A stretch of 64,000 bases of DNA from Polaribacter sp. KT25b (GTDB lineage Bacteria; Bacteroidota; Bacteroidia; Flavobacteriales; Flavobacteriaceae), in NCBI RefSeq assembly GCF_900105145.1, contig NZ_LT629752.1, positions 1,336,001 through 1,400,000 of the forward strand, read 5' to 3'. The translations under genes and the position numbers were made by a program. The notes beneath the pieces are model-generated. The model saw only the letters and a program-made list of their open reading frames with translations. It was not told where the DNA came from and ran no database searches. Every line of letters begins with the position of its first letter. Position 1 is the first letter of the stretch. Shown here piece by piece: positions 19,503 to 53,174 of this stretch.

Positions 19503-19585
19503 TGAATGAGTGCGTTAGGGATTGCAGTGGAAATCCTTTTGTGATAACAAAAGATTGCAGCGTAAAGCCCGTTAAAACGCCCAAA
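19503..19585. repeat. Dispersed repeat, copy 1
   Basis: Contains GCGTTAGGGATTGCAG, ATCCTTTTGTGATAACAAAAGAT (an internal hairpin) and GCGTAAAGCCCG in order. The reverse complement of 47990-48075 shows the same blocks (GCGTTAGCGATTGAAA, ATCCTTTT, AAAAAGAT, GTAAAGCGCG). It lies between a terminator and the stop of the outer membrane protein gene. GC content is clearly above the surroundings. Confidence 0.6.
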
Positions 19586-39621: not shown

Positions 39622-40896
39622 TTACTTCGGATATTTCTCTGCAATTTTATCCAAAGATAGATTGTGAATGCTACCAACATGCGTATGTTGTTTTCCTAAA
39701 TCTGGCTTGTAAGTTCCTGCTTGTACTTGTCCACCAATTTTTTGATACGCTTCTCTAAAACTCATACCTTCAACAACTAAATTATTGATGCTGTCAACCG
39801 TAAATAAATATTGATATTTCTCGTCATTCAAATCGATATCTTTTACAATTACTTGCTGAATAGAATAATTAAAGATGTCTAAAATATCTTTTACATCTTC
39901 AAAAGCATTGATTATATTTTCTTTTAATAATTGAAAATCTCTGTGATAACCTGTTGGTAAATTATTGGTAATCATGACCATTTCTGTGTGTAAAGCCTGA
40001 ATTTTATTACATTTTCCACGGATTAATTCAAAAACATCAGGATTTTTCTTGTGTGGCATAATGCTACTTCCTGTTGTTAATTCATCTGGAAACGTAATAA
40101 AACCAAAATTCTGACTCATATACAAACAAACATCCATTGCAAAACGAGACATTGTGTTACACAATCCGCCTAAAGCTGATGCGATTGAACGTTCACTTTT
40201 TCCTCTGCTTAATTGTGCAGCAACCACATTGTATTTTAAAGTAGCAAAATTTAATTCTTTGGTTGTTAATTCTCTGTCGATAGGGAAGGAGCTTCCATAA
40301 CCCGCAGCAGAACCTAAAGGATTTTGATCAACCACTTTTGCAACAGCATTTAACATATACACATCGTCAATTAACAGTTCTGCATACGCAGAAAACCACA
40401 ATCCGAAAGATGAAGGCATTGCAACTTGTAAATGTGTATAACCAGGTAAAAGGCTTTCTTTGTGAGTTTCAGCTAAACCTAAAAGTGTATCAAAAAGTGT
40501 TTTTGTTTTATCATTTATAATTGATAAATTCTCTTTATAATACAATTGTAGAGCAACTAAAACTTGATCATTTCTGGAACGAGCAGTATGAATTTTCTTA
40601 CCAACTTCTCCTAATTTATTGGTTAATTCCCATTCAATTTTAGAATGTACATCTTCAAAAGATGCTTCAATAATGAAAGTTCCGTTTTCAATATCTGATG
40701 CTAATTCTTCTAAGCCACTTTTTAAATCTTTTAATTCATCAGCAGTAATAATACCAATAGATTCTAGCATAATTGCATGCGCTAAAGAAGCTTGAACATC
40801 ATATTTTGCAATATGCATGTCAATTTCTCTATCATTACCAACTGTAAAAAGTTCTATTTGTTTGTCTATTGAAAATCCTTTATCCCACAACTTCAT
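39622..40896 (-). CDS. argH: Argininosuccinate lyase
   Basis: Last step of arginine synthesis: argininosuccinate to arginine and fumarate. 424 residues; superfamily signature GSSIMPHKKNPDVFEL, plus HTARSRNDQV, GYTHLQVAMPSSFG and NPLGSAAGYGSSF. The C-terminus KIAEKYPK is the part found again as a relic at 38.9 kb. It is the last gene of the arginine cluster on the minus strand, separated from the deacylase gene by a palindromic repeat. Confidence 0.97.
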   Translation of the reverse strand: MKLWDKGFSIDKQIELFTVGNDREIDMHIAKYDVQASLAHAIMLESIGIITADELKDLKSGLEELASDIENGTFIIEASFEDVHSKIEWELTNKLGEVGKKIHTARSRNDQVLVALQLYYKENLSIINDKTKTLFDTLLGLAETHKESLLPGYTHLQVAMPSSFGLWFSAYAELLIDDVYMLNAVAKVVDQNPLGSAAGYGSSFPIDRELTTKELNFATLKYNVVAAQLSRGKSERSIASALGGLCNTMSRFAMDVCLYMSQNFGFITFPDELTTGSSIMPHKKNPDVFELIRGKCNKIQALHTEMVMITNNLPTGYHRDFQLLKENIINAFEDVKDILDIFNYSIQQVIVKDIDLNDEKYQYLFTVDSINNLVVEGMSFREAYQKIGGQVQAGTYKPDLGKQHTHVGSIHNLSLDKIAEKYPK

Positions 40897-40913
40897 AATT
40901 TTTATATTTTGTT

Positions 40914-40985
40914 GTCATTGCGAAGAATGAAGCAATCTCATTTATTTTAAGTGAGATAACTTCGTCATATCTTCCTCGTTATGAC
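40914..40985. repeat. REP-like palindromic element, diverged copy
   Basis: Starts GTCATTGCGAAGAATGAAGC and ends in a partly matching complement ending CGTTATGAC. It is a degenerate relative of the perfect element at 42865-42928, placed in the argH/argE-like gap. Confidence 0.7.
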
Positions 40986-40997
40986 TTTTAGTTATAT

Positions 40998-41035
40998 TAT
41001 TTTTTTAAACAATTACACGATTCAACAATTCAACG
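40998..41035. repeat. AT-rich dispersed motif overlapping the end of the deacylase gene
   Basis: Contains TTTAAACAATTACACGATTC and AACAATTCAAC, matching the arms of the inverted repeat at 49158-49224. It supplies the last eight codons and stop of the argE-like gene (ELLNRVIV). Confidence 0.45.
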
Positions 41036-42072
41036 TATATTTTAATTCCTTCTTCAATTTCTGCAAGATAAATAAATTCATTGGCAGAATGAGATCGTGT
41101 GCTATCTCCAGGTCCTAATTTTAAAGATTGACAACTTAACACAGATTGATCTGACAATGTTGGTGAACCATAGGTTTCTCTTCCCATTGCAATTCCTGCT
41201 TTTACTAAATCGTGATCTGTAGAAATAGAAGAGGAGTTTAATCGTAAACTTCTAGGTGTAATTTTTGTACAAGGAGATTGTTCTTGTAAAATAGTTGCAA
41301 TTTCTTGGTTAGAATATGCATCATTTACACGAACATCTACCACTAAATTTGTATGAGCAGGCACAACATTGTGCTGTTTGCCAGCGTTAATTTGTGTTAC
41401 TGTCATTTTTACATCACCTAAGGCAACAGAAGGTTTCTCAAATTTGAAATCTTTAAACCATTGTAAAACTTCAATTGAATTGTAAATTGAATTGTTATTA
41501 TTTGGATGCGCAGCATGACTTGGAGTTCCTTCTATAACCGCATCAAAAACTACCAAACCTTTTTCTGCAACCGCTAAATTCATTAAAGTTGGTTCGCCAA
41601 CAATGGCAACATCAATATGAGGAATAATTGGCAACATACTATTTAATCCATTTGGGCCACTATTTTCTTCTTCTGCAGAAGCCACAATTACTAAATTGTA
41701 TTTTAGGTTTTCTTGAGCGTAAAAATTAGTAAAAGTTGCTATTAGAGAAACCAAACATCCACCAGCATCATTAGAACCTAAACCATATAATTTGCCATCT
41801 TCTACAATTGCTTTTAACGGATCGTTTGTATACGCAGTATTTGGGTGAACTGTGTCGTGATGAGAGTTTAGCAACATTGTTGGTTTGCTTTCATCAAAAT
41901 ATTTATTAGTTGCCCAAATATTGTTTTTTGTTCTTTTAAAAGGGATTTCATTTTCAATAAACCAACCTTCAATAAGTTTTGCTGTGTTTTCTTCTTCTTG
42001 TGAAAATGATTGCGTTTCAATCAAATTTTTTAAGAGAGAAATTGCATTTTCTGTTAATTTTTCGATATTCAT
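41005..42072 (-). CDS. M20-family acyl-ornithine/acyl-citrulline deacylase (ArgE-like)
   Basis: Removes the acyl group (acetyl or succinyl) from the acylated intermediate of arginine synthesis in the cytoplasm. 355 residues; di-zinc ligands in NSHHDTVHP, LGSNDAGG, the catalytic/bridging SAEEENSG, VGEPT and the late His in STRSHSANEF. The dimerisation domain is at about 175-280. It starts two bases after the argB stop, so the two are co-translated. Deacylation of acyl-citrulline is expected, because the carbamoyltransferase here acts on acyl-ornithine. Confidence 0.9.
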   Translation of the reverse strand: MNIEKLTENAISLLKNLIETQSFSQEEENTAKLIEGWFIENEIPFKRTKNNIWATNKYFDESKPTMLLNSHHDTVHPNTAYTNDPLKAIVEDGKLYGLGSNDAGGCLVSLIATFTNFYAQENLKYNLVIVASAEEENSGPNGLNSMLPIIPHIDVAIVGEPTLMNLAVAEKGLVVFDAVIEGTPSHAAHPNNNNSIYNSIEVLQWFKDFKFEKPSVALGDVKMTVTQINAGKQHNVVPAHTNLVVDVRVNDAYSNQEIATILQEQSPCTKITPRSLRLNSSSISTDHDLVKAGIAMGRETYGSPTLSDQSVLSCQSLKLGPGDSTRSHSANEFIYLAEIEEGIKIYVELLNRVIV

Positions 42073-42074
42073 TT

Positions 42075-42851
42075 TTATAATGTAATAGTTGTAAAATTAT
42101 CGTTTTCTTTTGTTAACATTGAGGTATTTCCAATATTTACTCTTGATACACCGTTGTTTAAAGCATCAAAGCAATTGTCTAATTTAGGAATCATTCCATC
42201 AGTAATAATTTTATCCACTAATAATTTTTGATAAGTTTTAGAATTGATAACTTTTACCACTGAATTTTTATCATTAAAATCTCTTAAAACACCATTCAAT
42301 TCAAAACAAAAATAAATGGATGTTTCATAGATTTCGCTCATGCCAACTGCAATTGTACTTGCAATTGTATCCGCATTTGTGTTTAATAATTGTCCATTTC
42401 CATTGTGTGTTATTGCACAAAAAACTGGTGTAAAATCAGCTTTAATTAATTTATCAATAGAATTATGAGCTATTTCTTTAACATCACCAACAAAACCAAA
42501 ATCGACTTCTTTTACAGGTCTTTTTTCTGATTTAATACTGTTGATATCTGCACCAGTTAAACCAATTGCATCAATGTTTAAAGCTTGTAATTTAGCCACC
42601 ACATTTTTGTTGACTAAACCACCATAAACCATGGTAATTACTTCTAAAGTTTCAGCATCAGTTATACGTCTGCCATTTACCATTTTAGATTCAATTCCGA
42701 GTTTTGAAGCAATATGAGTTGCACGTTTTCCTCCTCCATGAACTAAAATTTTATGGCCTTCTAAATTAGAAAATAATTTTAGAAAATCATTTAATGAAGT
42801 TTCATCTTCAATAATATTTCCTCCAATTTTTATGATTGATAATTTTTCCAT
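42075..42851 (-). CDS. argB: N-acyl-glutamate kinase (ArgB)
   Basis: Phosphorylates N-acetyl- or N-succinyl-glutamate, the second step of arginine synthesis. 258 residues of the amino acid kinase fold: IIKIGGNIIE, LVHGGGKRAT, GLTGADIN, LLNTNADTIAS and DGMIPKLDN. The frame opens six codons earlier, but that ATG belongs to the palindromic repeat at 42865-42928, so ATG 42851 (MEKLSIIKIGG) is taken. It overlaps no neighbour and is followed 2 bp later by the deacylase gene. Confidence 0.93.
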   Translation of the reverse strand: MEKLSIIKIGGNIIEDETSLNDFLKLFSNLEGHKILVHGGGKRATHIASKLGIESKMVNGRRITDAETLEVITMVYGGLVNKNVVAKLQALNIDAIGLTGADINSIKSEKRPVKEVDFGFVGDVKEIAHNSIDKLIKADFTPVFCAITHNGNGQLLNTNADTIASTIAVGMSEIYETSIYFCFELNGVLRDFNDKNSVVKVINSKTYQKLLVDKIITDGMIPKLDNCFDALNNGVSRVNIGNTSMLTKENDNFTTITL

Positions 42852-42864
42852 TTTTCGTATATCA

Positions 42865-42928
42865 GTCATTGCGAGGCACGAAGCAATCTCTTTCTTAATA
42901 GGCAGATTGCTTCGTGCCTCGCAATGAC
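42865..42928. repeat. REP-like palindromic element, perfect copy
   Basis: 25-bp perfect arms (42865-42889 and 42904-42928) beginning GTCATTGCGAGGCACGAAGC, with a 14-nt loop. The stop of argF' abuts it at 42930. GC content is well above the neighbourhood. The GTCATTGCGAG sequence is a known type of dispersed bacterial palindrome. Confidence 0.9.
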
Positions 42929-42929
42929 G

Positions 42930-43868
42930 TTAGTTGTTTTCTAATATTTTTTTCAAAACAATTTGTGCTGCAAAAGTTCTGTTATTAGCTTGTTCAATAA
43001 CCAAAGAACTATCAGAATCTAAAACAGCATCTTCCACCACCACATTTCTTCTAACTGGTAAACAATGCATAAATTTTGCATCTCCAATTTTCTCTTTCGT
43101 AATCATCCAATTAGGATCTGTGTTTAATATTTTTCCATACTCATTATAAGAACTCCAGTTTTTTGTGTATACAAAATCAGCATCTTTAAAAGCTTGTTCT
43201 TGATTGTTATAAATAGGTGTATTTTTTGTTATTTCTGAATTTAAATTATATCCTTCAGGGTTTGCAATTACAAACTCCACATCCATTTTTTGCATCGCTT
43301 GCACAAAACTATTTGCAACAGCATGTGGCAACGCTTTTACATGTGGCGCCCAAGATAAAACTACTTTTGGTCTCTTTTTGGTTGCATTTTCAGAAATGGT
43401 AATTGCATCTGTTAAAGCTTGTAAAGGATGTCCAGTTGCACTTTCCATACTTACAATTGGTACAGAAGCAAATTGAACAAAAGATTTTAAAACTTGTTCA
43501 GATTCGTCTAATTCTTTGTCTGTTAAGGTTGGGAAAGCTCTTACAGCAATGATATCACAATATTGAGAAACCACTTGTGCAGCTTCTTTAATATGTTCTG
43601 CAGTAGTACCATTCATAATCGTTCCATCTCCAAACTCAATTCCCCAAGCATCACCAGAAACATTCATAACAATAGGATTCATGCCTAAGTTTAAAGCTGC
43701 TTTTTGTGTGCTTAAACGAGTACGTAAACTAGAATTAAAAAATAACATCCCTAAGGTTTTATTTTTTCCTAAATGATTATTGCTTAATGGGTTTCTTTTA
43801 ATTTCTTTGGCCTCTTGAATCCAATCATCAAGATGTTCTATGTCGTTTATAGATGTGTAATTCTTCAT
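42930..43868 (-). CDS. argF': N-acyl-ornithine carbamoyltransferase (probably N-succinyl, ArgF')
   Basis: Transfers carbamoyl phosphate to an N-acylated ornithine. 312 residues; the carbamoyl phosphate loop is FFNSSLRTRLS (residues 43-53) as in the acyl-ornithine group, with HCLPVRRN near the C-terminus. Residue 90, which separates succinyl- (Pro in B. fragilis) from acetyl-ornithine enzymes (Glu in Xanthomonas), is Ala in NGTTAEHI. Small residues at this site are reported to favour succinyl-ornithine, so SOTCase is likelier. It is followed by a repeat and argB. Confidence 0.9.
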   Translation of the reverse strand: MKNYTSINDIEHLDDWIQEAKEIKRNPLSNNHLGKNKTLGMLFFNSSLRTRLSTQKAALNLGMNPIVMNVSGDAWGIEFGDGTIMNGTTAEHIKEAAQVVSQYCDIIAVRAFPTLTDKELDESEQVLKSFVQFASVPIVSMESATGHPLQALTDAITISENATKKRPKVVLSWAPHVKALPHAVANSFVQAMQKMDVEFVIANPEGYNLNSEITKNTPIYNNQEQAFKDADFVYTKNWSSYNEYGKILNTDPNWMITKEKIGDAKFMHCLPVRRNVVVEDAVLDSDSSLVIEQANNRTFAAQIVLKKILENN

Positions 43869-43921
43869 ACTATATTAATCGTTTTTAGATGCAGAAAATT
43901 AATCCAACATCAACTTTCAAA

Positions 43922-44686
43922 TTATTTTATTTTTGTAAACGGAACCTGATTTTTAAATGCATTTGCAATAAAATTATCTTCTAAACCATTTACAATCCAT
44001 GTTTCTATATTAGCTTTTTTAGCCAAAGCAGCAGCTTCAATTTTAGATTGCATTCCGCCGCTTCCATGTGTAGATTTTGAGTTTACAACCTCGTTTAATA
44101 ATTCATTAAGATTATGAACCTCTAAAATTGTTTTTGGCTCGTTATTTTTGATGGATTCTTTTGTGTAAATTCCAAAAGTATTTGTTGCAATAATTAACAA
44201 ATCAACCTCTAATAAAGTTGCGGTTAAAGCAGCTAATTTATCGTTATCACCAAACTGAATTTCATCAGTTGCAACTGTGTCATTTTCGTTGATAATAGGA
44301 ATATAATTATTTTGCACCAAAACGTTTATGGTGTTCACAATATTGATTTTACTTTGATCTCTTTCAAAATCTGAATAAGAGAGCAAACATTGTGAAGTTA
44401 ACAAACCATATTCTCTAAAAATTTCTTGATAAATTCTAATTAAATGTGGCTGACCAATAGAAGCAAGTGCTTGTTTTACAAATACTTCTTCATGCTTACT
44501 TTCTAATTTCACAAACTGTTTTGCAACCGCAATTGCACCAGAACTTACAATAACAAATTCGCAAGTATCTTTTAATTTTGCAATTTGATTTGCAAGATCT
44601 TCTATTTTTCCTCTTGAAATATTATCGGTTTCTTTGGTAAGCGTATTTGAACCTATTTTTAGTAAAATTCGTTTCTTTTTTTGCAT
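43922..44686 (-). CDS. proB: Glutamate 5-kinase without PUA domain
   Basis: First step of proline synthesis. 254 residues, only the amino acid kinase domain: LLKIGSNTLT, VIVSSGAIAVA, PIINENDTVATDE, FGDNDKLAALTA and GSGGMQSKIEAA. The C-terminal PUA domain of the 367-residue E. coli enzyme is absent. Feedback by proline may still occur through the kinase domain. It lies between proA and argF' within the arginine cluster and shares the glutamate pool with it. Confidence 0.93.
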   Translation of the reverse strand: MQKKKRILLKIGSNTLTKETDNISRGKIEDLANQIAKLKDTCEFVIVSSGAIAVAKQFVKLESKHEEVFVKQALASIGQPHLIRIYQEIFREYGLLTSQCLLSYSDFERDQSKINIVNTINVLVQNNYIPIINENDTVATDEIQFGDNDKLAALTATLLEVDLLIIATNTFGIYTKESIKNNEPKTILEVHNLNELLNEVVNSKSTHGSGGMQSKIEAAALAKKANIETWIVNGLEDNFIANAFKNQVPFTKIK

Positions 44687-44697
44687 TGTGTTTCTTT

Positions 44698-44768
44698 TTT
44701 CAACTGTTTACTCTGACTGTAAACCGCGACTCTAATTTAGACTGTCAAATACGACTGAAAACTGTAAA
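44698..44768. repeat. Degenerate tandem ACTG-rich repeat
   Basis: Units such as CTGACTGTAAACCGCGACT, TAGACTGTCAAATACGACTG and AAAACTGTAAA recur at about 15-20 bp through the proA/proB gap. The pattern resembles short dispersed repeats of this family. No promoter or terminator is clear in it. Confidence 0.4.
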
Positions 44769-44772
44769 ATAT

Positions 44773-45969
44773 TTAACTTCTCACTTGTCCATTTCCATGA
44801 ACATACCACTTATTAGTTACCAAATGTTGCAAACCAATTGGTCCACGTTGGTGTAATTTATCTGTACTAATTGCTAATTCGCCACCCAAACCTAACTGAC
44901 CTCCATCTGTAAATCGAGTAGATGCATTATGATAAACTGCAGCAGTATCTACGTTTTCCATAAATAGTTTTGCTTCAGCTTCATTTTTTGTAATAATTAC
45001 TGATGAATGTCCACCAGAATAGGTATTAATCATGGTAATTGCAGCTGAGTTTGATTCAATTTCTCCAATCACAATTTTATAATCTAAAAATTCTTCGTAC
45101 CAAACTTCGTTTGATGAAATTTGTTCTAGTTGATGAGATTTTGATATAGTTTCATCACCCAAAACCTGAATCTTAGCTTCATTTAATTTTGATATTAATG
45201 TACTGATGAATTTATTTTTATTCGGTAAATTTTGATCAATTAAAACTTTATCAACAGCATTACAAGCAGATATTTTTGATTTTCCGTTTAAAATAACAGC
45301 AATCGCAATATCTAAATCTGCTTCTTTAGAAACATACACAAAATTATTTCCACGTCCGCTTATAATAACCGGACACGTAGCGTGTTGTTTTACAAAAGCA
45401 ATTAAACGTTCTCCACCACGAGGTACAATTAAATCTACTTTTTGAGTTGGTTTTTCTAAAAATGCTTGTGTTTCAGTTCTGTTAAATTGTAAATACTCAA
45501 CCCAATCTGTTGCTGCATAATGTTGTTTCAAAGCTTGATGCCATAATTCAACAATTTTTAAGTTAGAATTTAAAGATTCTTTTCCGCCTTTTAATAAAAT
45601 TTTATTTCCAGATTTAAAAGCAATTCCAGCAGCTTCAACAGTAACATCTGGTCTAGATTCATAAATAATTAAAACCGTACCAAAAGAAGCAGTTTTATTA
45701 TAAACTTGCATTCCATTATCATGCTTAAAACTAAAACGAACTAAACCTACAGGATCTTCTTGAGAAGCCAAATGTTTAGCAGCTTTAATCATTTCATCAA
45801 CTTTTGAATCATCAACTTTTAGTCTGTCAAACATAGAAATATCATCACCTTTATAAGCCTCTAAATCTTTTTTATTGATGTTAATAATTGTTGCTCTTTC
45901 TTGTTCTAAAAGCACTGCCATTGTTAGTAAAACAGCATTTCTAGTTTCTATGGATAATAAGGTATTCAT
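44773..45969 (-). CDS. proA: Glutamate-5-semialdehyde dehydrogenase
   Basis: Reduces glutamyl 5-phosphate to glutamate semialdehyde with NADPH. 398 residues of the aldehyde dehydrogenase fold: IYESRPDVTVEAAG, LLKGGKESLNSN, LIVPRGGERLI, the catalytic Cys in KISACNAVDKVL, and the C-terminal DGGQLGLGGELAISTDKLHQRGP. It is directly upstream of proB on the minus strand. Both proline genes are embedded between argD and argF'. Confidence 0.95.
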   Translation of the reverse strand: MNTLLSIETRNAVLLTMAVLLEQERATIININKKDLEAYKGDDISMFDRLKVDDSKVDEMIKAAKHLASQEDPVGLVRFSFKHDNGMQVYNKTASFGTVLIIYESRPDVTVEAAGIAFKSGNKILLKGGKESLNSNLKIVELWHQALKQHYAATDWVEYLQFNRTETQAFLEKPTQKVDLIVPRGGERLIAFVKQHATCPVIISGRGNNFVYVSKEADLDIAIAVILNGKSKISACNAVDKVLIDQNLPNKNKFISTLISKLNEAKIQVLGDETISKSHQLEQISSNEVWYEEFLDYKIVIGEIESNSAAITMINTYSGGHSSVIITKNEAEAKLFMENVDTAAVYHNASTRFTDGGQLGLGGELAISTDKLHQRGPIGLQHLVTNKWYVHGNGQVRS

Positions 45970-46042
45970 GGTTTTGGTTAATTGTTTTGGTTGATAATTT
46001 TATATTTTATAAACTTTTCAACTATCTAAAAATAAAACGAAA

Positions 46043-47173
46043 TTATTCATCTAAAGCATCTACTAAAGCTTCAAAAAATTGATCGATATGTTCTTTTTTG
46101 ATTGTTAAAGGAGGTAAAATTCTTAATAAATTTTTATTCATTGCTCCGCCAGTAAAAATGTGATACTCGTAAATTAATTTTTTACGTAAATCTCCTACTT
46201 CAAAATCAAATTCTAAACCTAGCATTAAGCCTTTTCCTTTAATATTTTTTATTTGAGGAATCGTTTTTGCAATTTTGATAAAATAACAAGACATTTCATT
46301 TACATTGTCTATCAATTTTTCTTCTTCAATTACTTTTATTACGGATAAACCTGCAGCGCAAGCTAAATGATTTCCTCCAAAAGTGGTTCCTAACATTCCG
46401 AATTTTGCTTCAATACAAGGATGAATTAAAATTCCTCCAATAGGAAAACCATTTCCCATTCCTTTTGCAATGGAAATTACATCTGGAGTTACATTATAAT
46501 GTTGAAAAGCAAAAAACTTACCAGATCTACCATATCCAGACTGCACTTCATCAGCAATAAAAAAAGTGTTATTAGCTTTACAAAGCACATCAACTTCTTC
46601 AAAGAATTCTTTAGTTGCTTCGTCTAAACCACCAACACCTTGAATAAATTCAACAATAACAGCACAAACATCTCCTTTTTCAAGTTCTGTTTTTACGGCT
46701 TCAATATCATTTAAATCTAAAATTGTAACTTTTTGTTGCGCGTTAATTGGCGCGATTATATTTTTGTTATCAGTGGCAGCAACAGCAGCAGAAGTTCGTC
46801 CGTGAAAACCATTTTTAAAAGCAATTACTCTAGATTTTCCTGTTTTAAAAGAAGCTAATTTTAACGCATTTTCGTTCGCTTCTGCACCAGAATTGCATAA
46901 AAATAGCTCATAATCTTTACAACCAGAAATCGTTTCTAACTTGTTCGCTAATTTAACTTGTAAAGGATTCTGAATTGCATTTGAATAAAAACCCAATTTT
47001 GAAACTTGCTTAGAAATTGCTTCTACATATTTTGGATGCGAATGACCAATAGAAATTACTGCATGACCTCCATACAAATCTAAATATTCTATTTTATTTT
47101 CATCATAAACATAAACACCTTTTGCTTTCACAGGTGTAACATCGTACAAAGGATAAACGTTAAATAATGGCAT
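46043..47173 (-). CDS. argD: N-acyl-ornithine aminotransferase (ArgD)
   Basis: PLP enzyme converting N-acyl-glutamate semialdehyde to N-acyl-ornithine. 376 residues of class III aminotransferase: FLCNSGAEANENALKLA, FKNGFHGRTSAAVAA, ADEVQSGYGRSGKFFAFQ, the PLP lysine in ISIAKGMGNGFPIGG, and GTTFGGNHLACAA. It starts 4 bp after the proC stop, so it is probably translated with it. Acetyl or succinyl preference cannot be read from the sequence. Confidence 0.94.
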   Translation of the reverse strand: MPLFNVYPLYDVTPVKAKGVYVYDENKIEYLDLYGGHAVISIGHSHPKYVEAISKQVSKLGFYSNAIQNPLQVKLANKLETISGCKDYELFLCNSGAEANENALKLASFKTGKSRVIAFKNGFHGRTSAAVAATDNKNIIAPINAQQKVTILDLNDIEAVKTELEKGDVCAVIVEFIQGVGGLDEATKEFFEEVDVLCKANNTFFIADEVQSGYGRSGKFFAFQHYNVTPDVISIAKGMGNGFPIGGILIHPCIEAKFGMLGTTFGGNHLACAAGLSVIKVIEEEKLIDNVNEMSCYFIKIAKTIPQIKNIKGKGLMLGLEFDFEVGDLRKKLIYEYHIFTGGAMNKNLLRILPPLTIKKEHIDQFFEALVDALDE

Positions 47174-47177
47174 GTTG

Positions 47178-47969
47178 TTAGTTTTTTATTTGGTTAATTT
47201 TATCAAAAGATTTATTAATTCCTTTTATTAAAGAAGAGCTTAAACCTTGATGTTCCATTTCGTTTAAACCTTCAATTGTGCAACCTCCGGGAGTTGTAAC
47301 TCTGTCTATTTCTGCTTCTGGATGTCTGCCAGATTCTTTTAATAAACTAGCGGCTCCAAAACAAGTTTGCATTGCTAATTTATGTGCAACATCTGCTTCA
47401 AAACCTAGTTGAATTGCGCCTTGAGTTGTGGCACGAATTAAGCGCATCCAAAAAGCAATTCCGCTTGCACAAATAACCGTTGCAGCTTGTAATTGTTCTT
47501 CCGGAATTTCCAATGAAACTCCTAAACTGTTAAAAATAGTTTGTGCTAATTCTACTTTTTCTTTTCCTTTAGTATTAGGAGAAAGACAGGTCATAGATTG
47601 ACCAACCGAAGCAGCAGTATTTGGCATTGATCGAATTATAAAATGATTTTCACCAACAATAGCTTCAATTTTAGCAATAGAAAACCCAGTAATAACAGAA
47701 ATTAAAACATGATTTTTATGTAAAAGTGGTTTTACGCTTGTTAAAATAGTTTCTAAATGTCTTGGCTGAACTGCAAAAATTAAAATATCAGAATTTTTAA
47801 TAGCTTCCGTATTATCAGAAGTTAAAATCACCTCGTTAAAGTCATTAAAATCTTTAATAGAATTGGTGTTTCTTTTCGTTAAATACAAAGAACTCACCAC
47901 TTTATTTTTCAATAAACCTTTGGATATAGATTGTCCTAAACTTCCTGCTCCAATAATTGCTACTTTCAT
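47178..47969 (-). CDS. proC: Pyrroline-5-carboxylate reductase
   Basis: Last step of proline synthesis. 263 residues: NAD(P)-binding start VAIIGAGSLGQSISKGLL, FAVQPRHLETIL, IRSMPNTAASVGQSM, and the C-terminal signature GRHPEAEIDRVTTPGGCTIEGLNEM. With proA and proB it completes proline synthesis inside the arginine cluster. It starts about 185 bp after argC in a gap that carries a dispersed repeat. Confidence 0.96.
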   Translation of the reverse strand: MKVAIIGAGSLGQSISKGLLKNKVVSSLYLTKRNTNSIKDFNDFNEVILTSDNTEAIKNSDILIFAVQPRHLETILTSVKPLLHKNHVLISVITGFSIAKIEAIVGENHFIIRSMPNTAASVGQSMTCLSPNTKGKEKVELAQTIFNSLGVSLEIPEEQLQAATVICASGIAFWMRLIRATTQGAIQLGFEADVAHKLAMQTCFGAASLLKESGRHPEAEIDRVTTPGGCTIEGLNEMEHQGLSSSLIKGINKSFDKINQIKN

Positions 47970-47989
47970 TTTTATTTTTTTTTTGGCGT

Positions 47990-48075
47990 TACCTAAAGGT
48001 CGCGCTTTACACTATATCTTTTTCTTCGTTCCTCAAAAAAAGGATGCCGTTTCAATCGCTAACGCGGGCTAGTAA
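47990..48075. repeat. Dispersed repeat, copy 2
   Basis: The reverse complement shares ordered blocks with 19503-19585: GCGTTAGCGATTG, ATCCTTTT, AAAAAGAT and GTAAAGCGCG. It lies in the 185-bp argC/proC gap, opposite in orientation to copy 1. The rest of the gap (48076-48154) shows nothing recognisable. Confidence 0.6.
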
Positions 48076-48154
48076 ATAATCAAGAACCATTTTCTTACTA
48101 TTATAATTACGAGGCAATCCTTTGGTAAATAAATCTTTGGCTATCGCCCTGCGA

Positions 48155-49138
48155 TTAAAAATAATTTGCTTTTAAATTCAATCCTAAGGTTTCTTTAAAG
48201 CCGTACATTAAATTCATATTCTGAATTGCTTGTCCAGAAGCTCCTTTCAATAAATTATCAATAGTACTTGTAATTAATAATTTATTGCCATGTTTTTCTA
48301 ATTGTACTAAACATTTGTTGGTGTTTACTACTTGTTTCATAAAAATGCTTTCATCAGAAACAAAAGTAAAAGCGGCATCTTTATAGTAGGTTTTATACAT
48401 TTTTTTCGCTTCTTCTAAAGTGCCATCAAACTTTGTGTAAGTAGTTGCAAAAATTCCTCTAGAAAAATCACCACGATTTGGCATAAAATTAATTTTAGAA
48501 TTAAAATTAGGTTGTAATTGATGTACAGTTTGATTAATTTCTCCTAAATGTTGATGATTAAATGCTTTATAATGAGAAAAATTATTATCTCTCCAAGTAA
48601 AATGTGTAGTTTCAGATAAAGAAGTTCCTGCGCCAGTTGCACCAGTTACAGCATTAATATGAACATCATTTTGTAACAAACCATTTGCAGCTAAAGGTAA
48701 AATTGCTAATTGTAAAGCAGTTGCAAAACAACCCGGATTTGCAATATATTTTGCGGTTTTTATAATTTCTTTATCCAATTCTGGTAAACCATAAACAAAG
48801 TCTTTTCCATCGAAATTTTTATCCGCAAGTAATCTAAAATCATTACTTAAATCAATGATTTTTGTAGTATCAGAAAAACTATTTTTGGCTAAAAAGGCAG
48901 TTGAATTTCCATGACCTAAACATAAAAACAACACATCAACATCAGCATTAATTTCGCTTGTAAAATTGATTTCTGTATCACCAATTAAATCTTGATGTAC
49001 TTTATACAATTTATTGCCAGCATTAGAAGTGCTATATACAAAATTGATATTTGTTTCAGGATGATTTAGCAATAATCTAATTAATTCTCCTGCTGTATAA
49101 CCTGCGCCACCGATAATTCCTATTTCTAAATTCTTCAT
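48155..49138 (-). CDS. argC: N-acyl-gamma-glutamyl-phosphate reductase
   Basis: Third step of arginine synthesis, NADPH-dependent. 327 residues: GIIGGAGYTAGELIRLLLNHP, LCLGHGNSTAF, the catalytic Cys in IANPGCFATALQLA, and FMPNRGDFSRGIFATTY. Its length and the short gap after PGCFAT fit the family type 1. It is between argG and proC on the minus strand; an AT-rich inverted repeat separates it from argG. Confidence 0.95.
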   Translation of the reverse strand: MKNLEIGIIGGAGYTAGELIRLLLNHPETNINFVYSTSNAGNKLYKVHQDLIGDTEINFTSEINADVDVLFLCLGHGNSTAFLAKNSFSDTTKIIDLSNDFRLLADKNFDGKDFVYGLPELDKEIIKTAKYIANPGCFATALQLAILPLAANGLLQNDVHINAVTGATGAGTSLSETTHFTWRDNNFSHYKAFNHQHLGEINQTVHQLQPNFNSKINFMPNRGDFSRGIFATTYTKFDGTLEEAKKMYKTYYKDAAFTFVSDESIFMKQVVNTNKCLVQLEKHGNKLLITSTIDNLLKGASGQAIQNMNLMYGFKETLGLNLKANYF

Positions 49139-49157
49139 TCTTCAAAATTGTTTAAAA

Positions 49158-49224
49158 GTTGAACTGTTTAATCGTGTAAAAGTATGTTCTAAAACTTAGC
49201 CATTGCACAATTAAACAATTCAAC
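49158..49224. repeat. Imperfect inverted repeat in the argG/argC gap
   Basis: Arm GTTGAACTGTTTAATCGTG (49158-49176) pairs with CACAATTAAACAATTCAAC (49206-49224) with two mismatched positions in 19. The loop is 29 nt. Related sequence occurs at 40998-41035. Confidence 0.6.
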
Positions 49225-49245
49225 AATTATTCGTTTACACAAATT

Positions 49246-50421
49246 TTATTTATTTACTTGTTGATATATTTTATTCTGATTTCCTAAAATTTTGATAAAG
49301 CCTTTAGCATCATCAGCAGTCCAAGCTTTATTTTCTTCTCCATACGTACTAAATGCACTAGACATTAAATCGTGATCAGAAATAATTCCATCTAAAGAAA
49401 AATGATAAGGTTTTAAAGAAACGACAACATTTCCAGATACCATTTTCTGAGAACTTTGTAAAAAAGCTTCAGTATCTCTCATTACAGGATCTAAATATTG
49501 ACCTTCGTGTAAATGCATTCCGTAAAAACTAGACAAATATTCTTTGTGTTGTAATTGCCATTTTGTTAGGGTGTGTTTCTCTAACAAATGATGTGCTTTT
49601 ACTGTAATTAAAGCAGCTGCAGCTTCAAAACCAACTCTTCCTTTTGTTCCAACAATTGTATCACCAACATGAATGTCTCTACCAATTGCAAATTTTGAAG
49701 CGATATTATTTAAGTTTTCAATATTGATTTCAGGTTTGTTTTCTTCTCCATTTAAAGCAACAAATTCGCCGTTTTTAAAAGTCAAAGTAACTTTTTCTTC
49801 ACCTTCTTTTTCTAATTGAGAAGGATATGCTTCATTAGGTAAAGGAAGTTCAGACTTTAAAGTTTCAACGCCACCAACACTTGTTCCCCAAAGGCCTTTA
49901 TTTACAGAATATTTAGATTTTTCCCAAGGCATATCAATTCCTTCAGATTTTAAGTATTCTATTTCTTCTTGTCTTGTTAATTTTTGATCTCTAATTGGCG
50001 TAATAATGTTGATGCCTGGCGCCAAAGTTTGAAAAATCATATCAAAACGTACTTGGTCATTTCCTGCACCAGTACTTCCATGCGCAATATATTCTGCACC
50101 AATACTTTTAGCATATTCAACAATTTCTATTGCCTGAATAATTCTTTCAGCACTTACAGAAAGTGGATATGTACTGTTCTTTAATACGTTTCCAAAAATT
50201 AAATACTTTACTACTTTATTATAAAAAGTAGAAACAGCATCAATATTTTTATAAGTAGAAACGCCCATTTTATAAGCATTACTTTCTATATGTTTAATTT
50301 CTTCTGTTGTAAAACCACCTGTGTTTACACTTACAGCGTGTACTTCATATTCTTTTGATAAACTTACGGCACAATAAGAAGTGTCTAAACCGCCACTATA
50401 TGCAATTACTAATTTTTTCAT
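49246..50421 (-). CDS. argG: Argininosuccinate synthase
   Basis: Joins citrulline and aspartate with ATP. 391 residues: PP-loop VIAYSGGLDTSYCAVSL at the start, AHGSTGAGNDQVRFD, and KGLWGTSVGG. The N-terminal ATP pyrophosphatase fold is followed by the multimerisation domain. Its start overlaps the stop of the preceding GNAT gene by 4 bp, so translation is coupled. Confidence 0.96.
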   Translation of the reverse strand: MKKLVIAYSGGLDTSYCAVSLSKEYEVHAVSVNTGGFTTEEIKHIESNAYKMGVSTYKNIDAVSTFYNKVVKYLIFGNVLKNSTYPLSVSAERIIQAIEIVEYAKSIGAEYIAHGSTGAGNDQVRFDMIFQTLAPGINIITPIRDQKLTRQEEIEYLKSEGIDMPWEKSKYSVNKGLWGTSVGGVETLKSELPLPNEAYPSQLEKEGEEKVTLTFKNGEFVALNGEENKPEINIENLNNIASKFAIGRDIHVGDTIVGTKGRVGFEAAAALITVKAHHLLEKHTLTKWQLQHKEYLSSFYGMHLHEGQYLDPVMRDTEAFLQSSQKMVSGNVVVSLKPYHFSLDGIISDHDLMSSAFSTYGEENKAWTADDAKGFIKILGNQNKIYQQVNK

Positions 50422-51035
50422 TTTTTTTCTTTTTTTAAGAATAAACTTTGTTTTATATGTTTTAGTCTTTTAAAAACATTTTCTTTAACTTCTTTTGGAT
50501 CTTCAGTAATTTTATTATTCGGATCATATAACATGCCTGTACATAGGCACATTTTTCTTTCTGTTCTTGTTAAGACATCATAGTTTCTACAAGTTTTGCA
50601 TCCATCCCAAAAACTTTGATCGTCTGTTAATTCAGAAAAAGTTACAGGTTTGTAACCTAATTCTGTATTTAGTTTCATAACAGCTAAACCAGTTGTTATA
50701 CTAAATACTTTTGCATCTGGAAACTTTGTTCTAGAATGATTAAAAATTACTTGCTTAATTAGTTTTGCTAATCCTATATTTCTATAATCTGGATGTACAA
50801 TTAAACCAGAATTGGCAACAAATTTTCCATGTCCCCATTTTTCTATGTAGCAAAATCCTGCAAATTTATCACCATCTAAAGCAATAACAGCATTACCGTT
50901 TTCCATTTTAGTGGCAACGTATTCTGGTTTTCTTTTTGCGATACCTGTTCCTCTAACCTGAGCAGCGTCTTCTATGGTTTTACAAATAATATCTGCGTAA
51001 ACAGTATGTGATTTGTTAGCAATTACAATTTCCAT
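50418..51035 (-). CDS. GNAT-family acyltransferase, probable N-acylglutamate synthase of the arginine pathway
   Basis: First gene of the arginine cluster. 205 residues with the GNAT fold: acyl-CoA loop at VHPDYRNIGLAKLIKQV (about 77-93) and the strand FAGFCYIEKWGHGKF. A Cys-rich segment, WDGCKTCRNYDVLTRTERKM, and CLCTGM follow (about 141-165), which could bind a metal or serve as a sensor. Classical ArgA and ArgJ are absent from the window, so this is the best candidate for acylating glutamate with acetyl- or succinyl-CoA. The 4-bp overlap with argG supports that. It lies behind a leader of about 325 nt with an Arg-rich small ORF. Confidence 0.8.
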   Translation of the reverse strand: MEIVIANKSHTVYADIICKTIEDAAQVRGTGIAKRKPEYVATKMENGNAVIALDGDKFAGFCYIEKWGHGKFVANSGLIVHPDYRNIGLAKLIKQVIFNHSRTKFPDAKVFSITTGLAVMKLNTELGYKPVTFSELTDDQSFWDGCKTCRNYDVLTRTERKMCLCTGMLYDPNNKITEDPKEVKENVFKRLKHIKQSLFLKKEKK

Positions 51036-51157
51036 TGCATTGAATTTTTTATTTTATATAAGTTGTTGTTTGTTTTTTTGAAAGTAGAATCGGACTCACC
51101 TAAATTCCATAATAGTTTATACACCCAAAGGGCGAATAATAAAACTGCGTCGTACAT
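51023..51157 (-). CDS. Candidate small hydrophobic ORF overlapping the GNAT start
   Basis: 44-codon open frame from ATG 51157, starting MYDAVLLFALWVYKLLWNLG, whose stop TAA lies 12 bases inside the GNAT gene in another frame. The first 20 residues could form one membrane helix. It has no arginine codons. The overlap could couple its translation to that of the GNAT gene. The frame is short enough to occur by chance, so this is a candidate only. Confidence 0.35.
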   Translation of the reverse strand: MYDAVLLFALWVYKLLWNLGESDSTFKKTNNNLYKIKNSMQWKL

Positions 51158-51270
51158 TGTTATTGTTTAAAATAACTAAAGGTTGTAAGTAAGTTTTGTA
51201 AGAAAGATTCACGATAAAAAAATAAAAGGATAAATACTATAATAAGTTGTCTTGTTGCTAAAGTAAAATA

Positions 51271-51345
51271 TTAGCGACGGCGGTTGCGCAAGCGCAAGCT
51301 GGGAACTATTGTAGTACATAATTTATTTCTTCTTGAAGTAATCAT
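51271..51345 (-). CDS. Arginine-rich leader peptide of the arginine cluster
   Basis: 24-codon ORF, ATG 51345 to TAA 51271-51273. It begins MITSRRNKL and ends VPSLRLRNRRR: Arg at positions 5, 6, 18, 20, 22, 23 and 24, so 7 of 24 codons and the last three in a row. The five late codons are CGC, CGC, CGC, CGT and CGC, GC-rich codons that stand out in this AT-rich region, where AGA is usual. The stop directly follows the run. A -7 box lies about 23 bp upstream. About 235 nt separate its stop from the GNAT start. A ribosome starved of Arg-tRNA would stall here, the classic design of an attenuation leader. Confidence 0.8.
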   Translation of the reverse strand: MITSRRNKLCTTIVPSLRLRNRRR

Positions 51346-51367
51346 GGTGCTAAAGTATATATATTTT

Positions 51368-51375
51368 CAAAAGTA
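51368..51375 (-). promoter_or_regulatory. -7 box of the arginine leader promoter
   Basis: TACTTTTG on the minus strand, giving a start near 51361 and a 5' leader of about 15 nt before the Arg-rich ORF. No TTG lies at the usual distance upstream. About 325 nt of leader RNA would precede the GNAT gene. Confidence 0.5.
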
Positions 51376-51686
51376 TTATCATAAGTGTACCTTTTTTTTG
51401 TAAGTTTTATCAAATTTTAACAAAATTGGGATTTGAGTTGAAAATTAATCAACAGAATTCTTAAATAATCGTTTTTTGATAACATATAAATTGATAAACA
51501 CGTTGTTTTTTATGAAAATTAAAAACTTGTCAAAAAAAACAAAGTATTCTTTTAGTTTAATAATTTAAAGTCAGTTGTGTTTTTATCTAAAAAAAAAGTT
51601 ATTTAAATGAAAATCAGTAAGTTTGTTTTTAAAAGAACATCAGAAATCATGTTTTTTATAAATAAGTTAGTAGTAAAAAATAAAAA
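51376..51686. other. AT-rich gap upstream of the arginine leader
   Basis: 311 bp between the nnr stop and the arginine leader promoter. No gene, clear terminator or known riboswitch is seen; several poly-A/poly-T tracts and TAAA-rich stretches are present. Transcription from nnr could in principle run on into the leader. Confidence 0.4.
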
Positions 51687-53174
51687 TTATTCAGTTTCAA
51701 TTTTTAGATAATTGATAATATCCGAAGCAATTAAAGCGTTTTCTCCTTTTTGTTCGTCTGCATAATCTCCTGCTTTTCCATGAAAATACACACCAATTAA
51801 AGCTGCTTTAATAGGAGGGTAACCTTGCGCTAATAAGCCAGTAATTATTCCTGTAAGAGTATCACCACTTCCACCAGTTGCCATTCCTGGATTTCCAGAA
51901 ATATTAAAAAAAAGTGTTCCTTCTGGATTACAAATACATGTATTTGCACCTTTTAAAACAACAATACATTCATGTTCTTTTGCAAGCTGTTTTTGTTTTT
52001 CAAAACATTCTATAGTAGTTTTCCATGTGCCAACAAATCTTTCAAATTCTTTTGGATGTGGCGTTAAAACTGCGTTTTTTGGTAATATATTTAGTAATTC
52101 TCTATTTTCAGAAATAATATTTAAAGCATCAGCATCAATAACTAATGGAACTTTTGTTGATTCAAAAAGTTGTTTTAAAACTTCTTTTGTAGCATCCTTT
52201 TTTCCAATTCCCGGTCCAATTCCAATGGAATTGTAAGAAGAAATATCTGGTAATTCAGAAATATATTTTTTCTTTTTATCAGTTAAACACATTGCTTCTG
52301 GTGTAGAAATTTGCAAAATATTATATCCACAATTTGGAATGTATGTTGTTAAAAGTCCGGAGCCAGCTTTTAAACAAGCTTGAGAAGCCAAAACTGCGGC
52401 TCCGATTTTACCATAAGAACCTGCAATAATTAAGGCATGACCAAATGTTCCTTTATGTGAATGTTTTTCTCTTTTTTTTACACTTTTAGAAATTGTGCTA
52501 TCTAAAACAAAATTATTGGTTGGTAATTTTTGAATAAAATCTTCATCTAAACCTATGTTTATTACTTTCCAGTTTTTAATATATTGGTTACTTTCTTGAA
52601 AGAAAAAAGATAATTTTGGTCTTTGAAAACTAATTGTAAGATCAGACTTTACAATAAAATCAGAATCAGGTAATTGATTGCAATATAAACCAGAAGGAAT
52701 ATCAACAGAAAAAACATGTTTTTTTACTTCATTTATGCTTTTAATAGTTTTTGCAGCTAAACCTTCAACTTTTCTAGTTAAGCCAGAACCAAAAATAGCA
52801 TCAATAATTATGTCAAATTTGTTAAAATCAAACAAATCATCTTCAGATTTTATAATTGTAACTTCTTCTAGTTTATTAAAATTGGTTTTACAATCGAGAG
52901 AAAGATTATTAGCTGTTTTTATTAAAATTGCTTCTGCAAGATAGCCTTTAGCTTGTAATATTCTTGTAATTGCAAAACCATCTCCACCATTGTTACCAAC
53001 TCCGCAAATAACTACAATTTTTGAATAGTTATAAATATTTTTATGAATAGCATTTACAAAAGAAAGAGAAGTTCTTTCCATTAATTTTAAAGAAGAAATA
53101 CCTTCTTTTTTAATCGTATAATTATCGGTTTCTTTTGTTTGATTTGCCGATATTATTTTTTTTAGATCGAACAA
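51687..53174 (-). CDS. nnr: Bifunctional NAD(P)H-hydrate epimerase / ADP-dependent NAD(P)H-hydrate dehydratase
   Basis: Repairs hydrated NADH and NADPH. 495 residues with both domains: the N-terminal YjeF epimerase (about 1-215, VICGVGNNGGDGFAITR, IIDAIFGSGLTR, SVDIPSGLY) and the C-terminal ribokinase-like dehydratase (about 225-495, SYGKIGAAVLASQA, GIGPGIGKKD, DADALNI, VLTPHPKEFERF, GNPGMATGGSGDTLTG). It is a monocistronic-looking housekeeping gene, divergent from the DUF2141 gene. Confidence 0.95.
   Translation of the reverse strand: MFDLKKIISANQTKETDNYTIKKEGISSLKLMERTSLSFVNAIHKNIYNYSKIVVICGVGNNGGDGFAITRILQAKGYLAEAILIKTANNLSLDCKTNFNKLEEVTIIKSEDDLFDFNKFDIIIDAIFGSGLTRKVEGLAAKTIKSINEVKKHVFSVDIPSGLYCNQLPDSDFIVKSDLTISFQRPKLSFFFQESNQYIKNWKVINIGLDEDFIQKLPTNNFVLDSTISKSVKKREKHSHKGTFGHALIIAGSYGKIGAAVLASQACLKAGSGLLTTYIPNCGYNILQISTPEAMCLTDKKKKYISELPDISSYNSIGIGPGIGKKDATKEVLKQLFESTKVPLVIDADALNIISENRELLNILPKNAVLTPHPKEFERFVGTWKTTIECFEKQKQLAKEHECIVVLKGANTCICNPEGTLFFNISGNPGMATGGSGDTLTGIITGLLAQGYPPIKAALIGVYFHGKAGDYADEQKGENALIASDIINYLKIETE

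What the first reader, a model, noticed from the sequence alone, without database searches (positions are those of the whole stretch)
51271..51345. Arginine-rich leader peptide ahead of the arginine biosynthesis cluster
The minus-strand ORF has seven Arg in 24 codons, five of them in the last seven, directly before the stop, and uses CGC/CGT in DNA where AGA dominates. It lies behind a -7 box and upstream of the GNAT-argG-argC-proC-argD-proA-proB-argF'-argB-argE-argH cluster. This is the layout of trp/his-type ribosome-mediated attenuation, but with arginine and in Bacteroidota, where I know of no described case. I see no canonical intrinsic terminator between it and the GNAT gene, so the read-out may be Rho, RNA folding over the GNAT start, or transcript stability rather than a classic attenuator.
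Basis: partly seen in the sequence, partly recalled or inferred. Interest (0 to 1): 0.88.

Follow-up and report, generated by a model that had tools for sequence, protein, structure and literature searches.

The report
Arginine-codon leaders before flavobacterial arginine genes
Many flavobacteria that seem to lack the usual arginine repressor carry, just before their arginine-making genes, one or two tiny arginine-rich reading frames and conserved RNA hairpins that probably let ribosomes measure arginine supply, without the terminator that such switches usually end in.

Summary
The 24-codon ORF is real and conserved; the window is Polaribacter. Of 130 Flavobacteriaceae GNAT-arg loci, 121 have an Arg-rich short ORF upstream, against 10 of 130 on the other strand. 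Other genera have ORF2 alone.

ORF2 runs into two hairpins. hp1 holds the last Arg codon in its 5' arm and usually the stop codon in its loop. hp2 is a covarying stem with a near-invariant GGUGNGUCC tip. A covariance model of hp1+hp2 strongly hits 123 of 199 family genomes, all with argG; ArgR is found in 1 of 199. No Rfam family matches. Leader-end Arg codons are 93-97% CGN, mostly CGC, which is 1 of 112 Arg codons in sampled window genes. ORF1's early codons pair with the stretch just before ORF2's start.

No intrinsic terminator was found, though the same genome's his leader has one. Arg-tRNA sensing by leader translation is very likely. The read-out is inferred; Rho-type attenuation gated by hp1/hp2 is my best guess. 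New variant of a known kind.

The parts
51351..51359 (-). probable -7 box region (TATACTTTA) just before ORF1; a full TACTTTTG lies 30 nt before the ATG
   Evidence: TAnnTTT[A/G] within 30 nt of the ORF1 start in 86 of 105 loci, 79 of these at -12/-13; control 12 of 103. The window copy at -12 departs by one base.
51271..51345 (-). ORF1, the reported Arg-rich leader peptide, 24 codons
   Evidence: ORF1 found by script in 70 of 80 named loci and 105 distinct two-leader loci
51304..51332 (-). PL 5' arm: ORF1 codons about 5-14
   Evidence: own pairing -11.0 against -8.0 kcal/mol (sd 0.19) when arms are swapped between 105 loci; tile test z -7.9; coordinates
51284..51297 (-). small hairpin over ORF1 Arg codons (TTGCG CTTG CGCAA)
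   Evidence: in the fold of the window; weaker swap signal z -4.5 over 105 loci
51257..51275 (-). small hairpin at the ORF1 stop (GCTAA...TTAGC)
   Evidence: in the fold of the window; similar by eye in several relatives; not among the 20 top pairs of the swap test
51216..51246 (-). PL 3' arm, directly before the ORF2 start
51117..51212 (-). ORF2, second leader, GTG start, 31 codons, ends VRRSFIIRPLGV
   Evidence: In 105 two-leader loci the codon 30 or 31 places before the stop is ATG, GTG or TTG in 76, at most 6 at any other place from 20 to 44
51159..51176 (-). hp0, hairpin GTTATT...AATAAC inside ORF2 before its Arg codons
   Evidence: strongest covarying helix outside hp2 in the two-leader alignment of 49; swap test z -8.7 (two leaders), -4.1 (one leader)
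51122..51134 (-). hp1, CGCCC TTT GGGTG; 5' arm holds the last Arg codon of ORF2
   Evidence: 89.3% of cells paired, few double changes (2 loci CGCAC/GTGCG); the ORF2 stop lies between the arms in 144 of 195 loci, not in the window
51085..51109 (-). hp2, stem TGGAATT / GATTCTA with tip GGTGAGTCC (51092..51100)
   Evidence: 7 of 8 pairs change on both sides in 114 sequences; model R1
50418..51035 (-). GNAT, first gene of the operon
   Evidence: PF00583, 25.1 bits; no NCBIfam match
39622..50421 (-). downstream cluster: argG, argC, proC, argD, proA, proB, argF', argB, argE/dapE-family, argH-type

Best explanation
The region is an arginine-sensing control leader of the GNAT-argG operon. Shown by comparison: one or two Arg-rich leader ORFs with hairpins hp0, hp1 and hp2 stand before this operon in most Flavobacteriaceae that have argG. 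Inferred: the sensor is the translating ribosome. When charged tRNA-Arg is short it stalls on the rare CGN codons at the leader end; its footprint then lies on the 5' arm of hp1, hp1 cannot form, and the operon is expressed. When arginine is plentiful the ribosome reaches the stop codon and leaves, hp1 and hp2 fold, and expression falls. In window-like genomes ORF1 adds an upstream stage: a ribosome held on its early codons keeps the long stem PL open and frees the ORF2 start, while free passage lets PL close over it. The read-out is not an intrinsic terminator. I commit to factor-dependent (Rho-type) termination behind hp2, gated by hp1/hp2, at about 45% of its own; mRNA decay or a factor bound to hp2 come next. 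The confidence below is for arginine sensing by leader translation, not for the Rho step.
For: 121 of 130 loci have an Arg-rich ORF (10 of 130 on the other strand). Leader-end Arg codons: 381 of 409 (ORF1, last 8) and 615 of 637 (ORF2, last 9) are CGN, against 30 of 112 in window genes. Third positions differ most in the last nine codons of ORF2 (30- and 31-codon groups), not in the first twenty. hp1+hp2: 89 cells changed on both sides against 24 in shuffles, covariation 0.271 against 0.139, 0 of 500 shuffles as high. R1 strong in 123 of 199 family genomes, all within the 138 with argG. ArgR in 1 of 199, a partial hit at the cut-off. In G084 and G152 the first gene is another GNAT-like protein, yet the leader is intact. 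ORF2 stop to hp2 tip is 27-30 nt in 93 of 119. PL. No terminator; Rho encoded; 50 nt before GNAT have C 16%, G 6%, against C 12%, G 10.5% before 46 window ORFs. A his leader of classic form in the same genome shows that leader attenuation is plausible here.
Against: No expression, arginine-response or ribosome data. Shuffle and swap controls do not correct for shared ancestry. The whole window leader is no more stable than shuffles. 9 of 130 GNAT loci and 15 of 138 argG genomes lack the R1 element. In some Polaribacter loci ORF2 keeps only one or two Arg (L198, L204, L208, L224). In the window the ORF2 stop is not in the hp1 loop. No alternative pairing that would couple hp1 to hp2 was demonstrated, and no rut site was tested.
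Confidence: 0.8

Rival explanations
1. Same sensor, other read-out: ribosome position changes RNA folding so that the mRNA is cut or degraded, or the GNAT start is masked, as for speF orf34 or rbfL.
For: No terminator; hp2 is a compact conserved hairpin; speF orf34 uses RNase G and Rho (PMC6386406 abstract); rbfL acts on translation (PMC13009471 passages).
Against: For masking: the GNAT AUG is equally open with or without hp1 (0.31 and 0.32, 109 loci), and the first gene can be exchanged. For decay: nothing tested.
Confidence: 0.3
2. hp1/hp2 is primarily a binding site for a protein, for arginine itself or for ribosomal RNA, and the leader ORFs only tune it.
For: Near-invariant tip GGUGNGUCC, element confined to arg operons in this sampling. 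The tip can partly pair with the 16S tail GGAACACCU found in the genome (pairing judged by eye).
Against: The Arg codons and their CGN choice are kept next to hp1. Three genomes with GAUGNGUUC keep the inner stem pair, which speaks for a stem rather than 16S pairing.
Confidence: 0.15
3. The nascent Arg-rich peptide senses free arginine and arrests the ribosome, as in fungal arginine attenuator peptides (recalled).
For: Conserved RRP end in many ORF2 copies.
Against: Residues other than Arg vary widely. Where hp1 changes to CGCAC/GTGCG (G100, G007) the Pro is lost and the stem kept, so the Pro probably reflects hp1.
Confidence: 0.05
4. Chance Arg run in an AT-rich intergenic region.
For: Short ORFs are common: 463 of 12-40 codons in the window.
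Against: Conserved in position, codon choice and structure over much of a family.
Confidence: 0.01

Closest known systems
Ribosome-mediated amino-acid attenuators (trp, his, leu type; recalled) and the his leader of this same genome
   Same: Leader ORF rich in codons for the product amino acid, before the biosynthetic operon, close behind a promoter, with hairpins after it.
   Different: No intrinsic terminator here; CGN codons and a dedicated hairpin hp2; two leaders in tandem in window-like genomes; arginine.
orf34 leader of Salmonella speF (PMC6386406; abstract and section list seen)
   Same: Arg codons in a leader ORF sense arginine; read-out involves Rho and RNA folding.
   Different: Controls putrescine synthesis, not arginine synthesis; two consecutive Arg codons; RBS sequestration and RNase G reported there, not seen here.
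rbfL leader of Staphylococcus aureus (PMC13009471; abstract and passages seen)
   Same: Rare Arg codons make a leader ribosome pause when arginine is short.
   Different: Controls a biofilm regulator by blocking its RBS; AGA/AGG codons; repression on pausing.
Structured 5' regions of Flavobacterium psychrophilum (PMC9723704; section 19 and passages seen)
   Same: Same family; leader-peptide attenuation suggested before amino-acid operons; hisG and pheA elements named as conserved in other genera.
   Different: No arg leader named in the text seen; its supplements could not be read. Twenty genomes of genus g128 listed have no R1 hit.

Membership tests
Classic ribosome-mediated transcription attenuator | Leader ORF enriched in codons of the regulated amino acid | tested here: met
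Classic ribosome-mediated transcription attenuator | Stands before the biosynthetic operon of that amino acid | tested here: met
Classic ribosome-mediated transcription attenuator | Intrinsic terminator between leader and first gene | tested here: not met
   0 found in 50950..51700 in the window; in relatives judged by eye only
Classic ribosome-mediated transcription attenuator | Mutually exclusive RNA structures set by ribosome position | tested here: inconclusive
   hp0, hp1, hp2 and PL supported; no exclusive alternative shown
Classic ribosome-mediated transcription attenuator | Expression falls with amino-acid supply through leader translation | not testable with these tools
   needs experiments
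speF orf34-type Arg leader with Rho/RNase read-out | Masking of the downstream start by leader structure | tested here: not met
   AUG openness 0.31 and 0.32 in 109 loci
speF orf34-type Arg leader with Rho/RNase read-out | Rho-dependent termination before the first gene | not testable with these tools
   Rho is encoded; C over G before GNAT; no termination data
ArgR regulon | ArgR repressor in the genome | tested here: not met
   PF01316 in 1 of 199 family genomes, not the window's; 9 of 14 control genomes ring
Known Rfam element (T-box, riboswitch, Flavo-1 and others) | Covariance-model match over the leader | tested here: not met
   only a chance-level snoRNA hit, E 3.9; none at E<=1 in five relatives; the two Flavo-1 hits in the window lie elsewhere

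The most novel reading that the evidence does not exclude
A terminator-less class of attenuator with its own read-out element: hp2 is recognised by a dedicated factor or by the transcription machinery itself, and in window-like genomes two tandem leaders form a relay in which ribosome position on ORF1 gates ORF2 initiation through PL, giving a two-step arginine gate in bacteria without ArgR.
Probability: 0.35. Interest if true: 0.88.

Novelty: new variant of a known kind. Interest (0 to 1): 0.77.

Why it matters
How Flavobacteriaceae control arginine synthesis is open: ArgR is found in only 1 of 199 genomes sampled. A leader found across much of the family would fill that gap, give a new RNA motif (hp1/hp2) with an unknown reader, and offer a natural system for asking how ribosome position controls expression without an intrinsic terminator. 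The classic-looking his leader in the same genome makes a built-in comparison.

Tried and rejected
Rfam scans of the whole window, the leader and five relatives gave no family for it. R1 on phylum and order samples gave many weak hits (E about 1e-5 to 0.01); 21 of these and three sub-threshold hits of the own genome were looked at, and 22 of the 24 lie inside an open stretch of 100 codons or more (not L160, L171), so I take them as chance. L151 (G575, E 2.2e-5) does have an hp2-like tip by eye. Weak hits without a locus were not looked at. Of the weak family hits, two were read (G074 and the second hit of G075); G093 was not. The second GGTGNGTCC of the own genome has no obvious flanking stem. 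An anti-hp2 hairpin from the spacer before hp2 was considered from the sequence only. Early ORF2 codons may pair with the Arg region in one-leader genomes (z -4.6): weak. T-box likeness and 16S-tail pairing were not pursued beyond. Global fold energy was uninformative.

Rows dropped: A1 holds 114 of 130 loci. The script found an hp2 in 119; G119 and G137 were mis-picked, and G115, G061 and G177, with long spacers, were left out. One search used 112 of 117 loci. The pooled set is 195 of 210 loci; named and unnamed records may be the same genome, and only identical ORF1 copies were removed (110 to 105). In one search the ORF2 start was chosen as the NTG nearest 31 codons before the stop, which biases its length count; one search repeats it without that choice.

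Full report
WHAT IS THERE. On the minus strand the ORF at 51345..51271 reads MITSRRNKLCTTIVPSLRLRNRRR and stops 235 nt before the GNAT gene that heads argG, argC, proC, argD, proA, proB, argF', argB, an argE/dapE-family gene and an argH-type lyase. Seven of 24 codons are Arg, five of the last seven. Of 463 ATG ORFs of 12-40 codons in the window one has at least four Arg in its last eight codons. Named relatives show that the window is Polaribacter.

CONSERVATION. The GNAT protein was found in 131 of 199 Flavobacteriaceae genomes; one marginal hit (G173, E 7.9e-5) was dropped, leaving 130 loci with the window, whose upstream regions were all taken. Of these, 121 have an ORF with at least 3 Arg in its last 9 codons within 430 nt; on the opposite strand 10 do. 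There are two layouts: 49 loci with two leaders and 63 with one, five of the 117 left out. Window-like genomes have ORF1 and, 44-50 nt after its stop in 74 of 105 loci, ORF2. In those 105 loci the codon 30 or 31 places before the ORF2 stop is ATG, GTG or TTG in 76, and at most 6 at any other place from 20 to 44. That marks a real start: TTG in 46, GTG in 39, ATG in 20. Other genera have ORF2 alone, mostly with an ATG. Of 80 named loci, 70 show ORF1 by the script's criteria and 77 show the hp2 tip.

PROMOTER. TAnnTTT[A/G] lies within 30 nt before the ORF1 ATG in 86 of 105 loci (control 12 of 103), at -12/-13 in 79, and before the single leader in 36 of 57 (control 2). The mRNA may thus start almost at the leader AUG (inference). 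The window's own copy departs by a base.

CODONS. In 16 window genes 82 of 112 Arg codons are AGA/AGG and CGC is used once. In the last eight codons of ORF1 (105 loci) 381 of 409 Arg codons are CGN, 264 of them CGC; in the last nine of ORF2 (195 loci) 615 of 637 are CGN, 327 of them CGC. In the last nine codons of ORF2 third positions differ most; the first twenty show no such excess. Over the whole ORF1 the position counts show no clear third-position excess in the 24-codon group (6113, 7094, 6921) and a small one in the 23-codon group; among close pairs it is clearer. So Arg and its rare codons are kept while the rest drifts, which favours a codon (tRNA) sensor over an arrest peptide.

RNA ELEMENTS. 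hp1 (CGCCC, short loop, GGGTG) follows the Arg codons; the leader stop lies between its arms in 144 of 195 loci, though not in the window. hp2 follows, its tip 27-30 nt after the ORF2 stop in 93 of 119. Seven of eight hp2 pairs change on both sides in 114 sequences; the tip GGUGNGUCC is nearly invariant, and three genomes with GAUGNGUUC keep the inner pair. Whole structure: 93.2% of cells paired (shuffles 86.4), 89 cells changed on both sides (24), covariation 0.271 (0.139; 0 of 500 as high), pairs changed on both sides 8 (5.4; 2 of 500 as high), slid controls lower. Most of this comes from hp2; hp1 varies little. An alignment-free test that swaps arms between genomes finds hp2 in both layouts (z -10.7 and -9.6) and hp0 before the Arg codons (z -8.7 and -4.1), and in two-leader loci a long-range stem PL joining early ORF1 codons to the bases before the ORF2 start (-11.0 against -8.0 kcal/mol, sd 0.19; z -7.9). 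None of these controls removes shared ancestry, and the window leader as a whole folds no better than shuffles.

SPECIFICITY. The hp1+hp2 model hits its own genome once (54.8 bits; next 14.0). In the family sample 125 of 199 genomes match at E<=0.001, two only weakly, leaving 123; 121 of them have the GNAT. All 123 are among the 138 genomes with argG; 15 argG genomes lack it. The model was built from 114 of these loci, so its hits there are partly by construction; G084 and G152 were not in it. In 395 phylum and 296 order genomes, hits at E<=1e-11 occur only in this family (Infernal's stricter filters were used). In G084 and G152 the first gene is a different GNAT-like protein (G084: 25% identity over 128 residues, E 0.28; PF00583 above cut-off in G152, below it in G084), yet the leader is intact. 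The leader goes with the operon, not with that gene.

NO ARGR, NO TERMINATOR. ArgR (PF01316) is found in 1 of 199 family genomes, a partial hit at the cut-off, while 9 of 14 control genomes ring, a Bacteroides among them. No terminator-like site lies in 50950..51700. In the same genome, about 160 nt before hisG, a leader MTFIQFHHHHFYNCNQAI is followed by a hairpin and a T run (read by eye). So the classic form is available to this organism and the arg leader is built differently.

HOW IT MOST LIKELY WORKS. Shown: the parts, their conservation and pairing. Inferred: leader ribosomes slow on CGN codons when charged tRNA-Arg falls; a ribosome there covers the 5' arm of hp1; after normal termination hp1 and hp2 can fold. 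The narrow stop-to-hp2 spacing fits a ribosome-position gate. PL would add a step in which ORF1 translation controls access to ORF2. The GNAT start is equally open with or without hp1 (0.31 and 0.32, 109 loci) and the first gene can be exchanged, so a transcription or decay read-out is likelier than start masking. Rho is encoded and the 50 nt before GNAT have C 16%, G 6%, against 12% and 10.5% before 46 window ORFs: consistent with Rho, not proof.

COMPARED WITH WHAT IS KNOWN. It works like an amino-acid leader attenuator but fails that family's terminator feature, so I do not file it as a classic member. The nearest arginine cases seen are speF orf34 of Salmonella (PMC6386406, abstract and section list) and rbfL of S. 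aureus (PMC13009471, passages); neither controls arginine synthesis. For Bacteroidota, PMC9723704 (section 19; passages) reports clues for leader attenuation before amino-acid operons and names hisG and pheA elements; PMC7366714 (passages) mentions leader-like sORFs in Bacteroides. PMC8632094 and PMC4833913 (passages) showed nothing on this. Ten searches of the open-access library (one search listed 15 of 28 papers) listed no paper on an arginine leader in Bacteroidota. Subscription papers and supplements were not searched, and a 2010 survey by Lopatovskaya and colleagues was seen only as a reference.

Noticed in passing
G000:C1 about 160 nt before hisG (hisG match 1626942, +), locus L266: Histidine leader MTFIQFHHHHFYNCNQAI followed by AACCCGTTTG-AGCAAAT-CAAACGGGTT and a T run: a classic-looking his attenuator in this Polaribacter.
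   Followed up: partly
window 47994..48074 (-) and 19510..19578 (+): Two Flavo-1 RNA matches (RF01705), one between argC and proC inside the arg cluster.
   Followed up: no
window 50418..51035 (-); L262:954-1538; L263:1055-1648: The GNAT at the operon head is replaced in two genomes by an unrelated-looking GNAT-like protein at the same place, which suggests that it is the N-acylglutamate synthase step of the pathway.
   Followed up: partly
199 Flavobacteriaceae genomes: ArgR (PF01316) in only 1 of 199, a partial hit, while a Bacteroides control rings.
   Followed up: partly
L198, L204, L208, L224: In some Polaribacter loci ORF2 keeps only one or two Arg while ORF1 keeps its Arg codons, as if sensing had moved from ORF2 to ORF1.
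   Followed up: no
genus g128 genomes, e.g. G127: Twenty genomes of one genus listed have no R1 hit; G127 has the GNAT and argG but no leader.
   Followed up: no
window 51092..51100 (-); G000:C1:2858092-2858105: The hp2 tip AGGUGNGUCC can partly pair with the 16S rRNA tail GGAACACCU (5 bp plus 3 bp by eye); the tail sequence occurs once in the genome.
   Followed up: partly
G084, G152, G174 and one-leader loci: In one-leader genomes early ORF2 codons may pair with the Arg-codon region around hp0 (z -4.6).
   Followed up: partly
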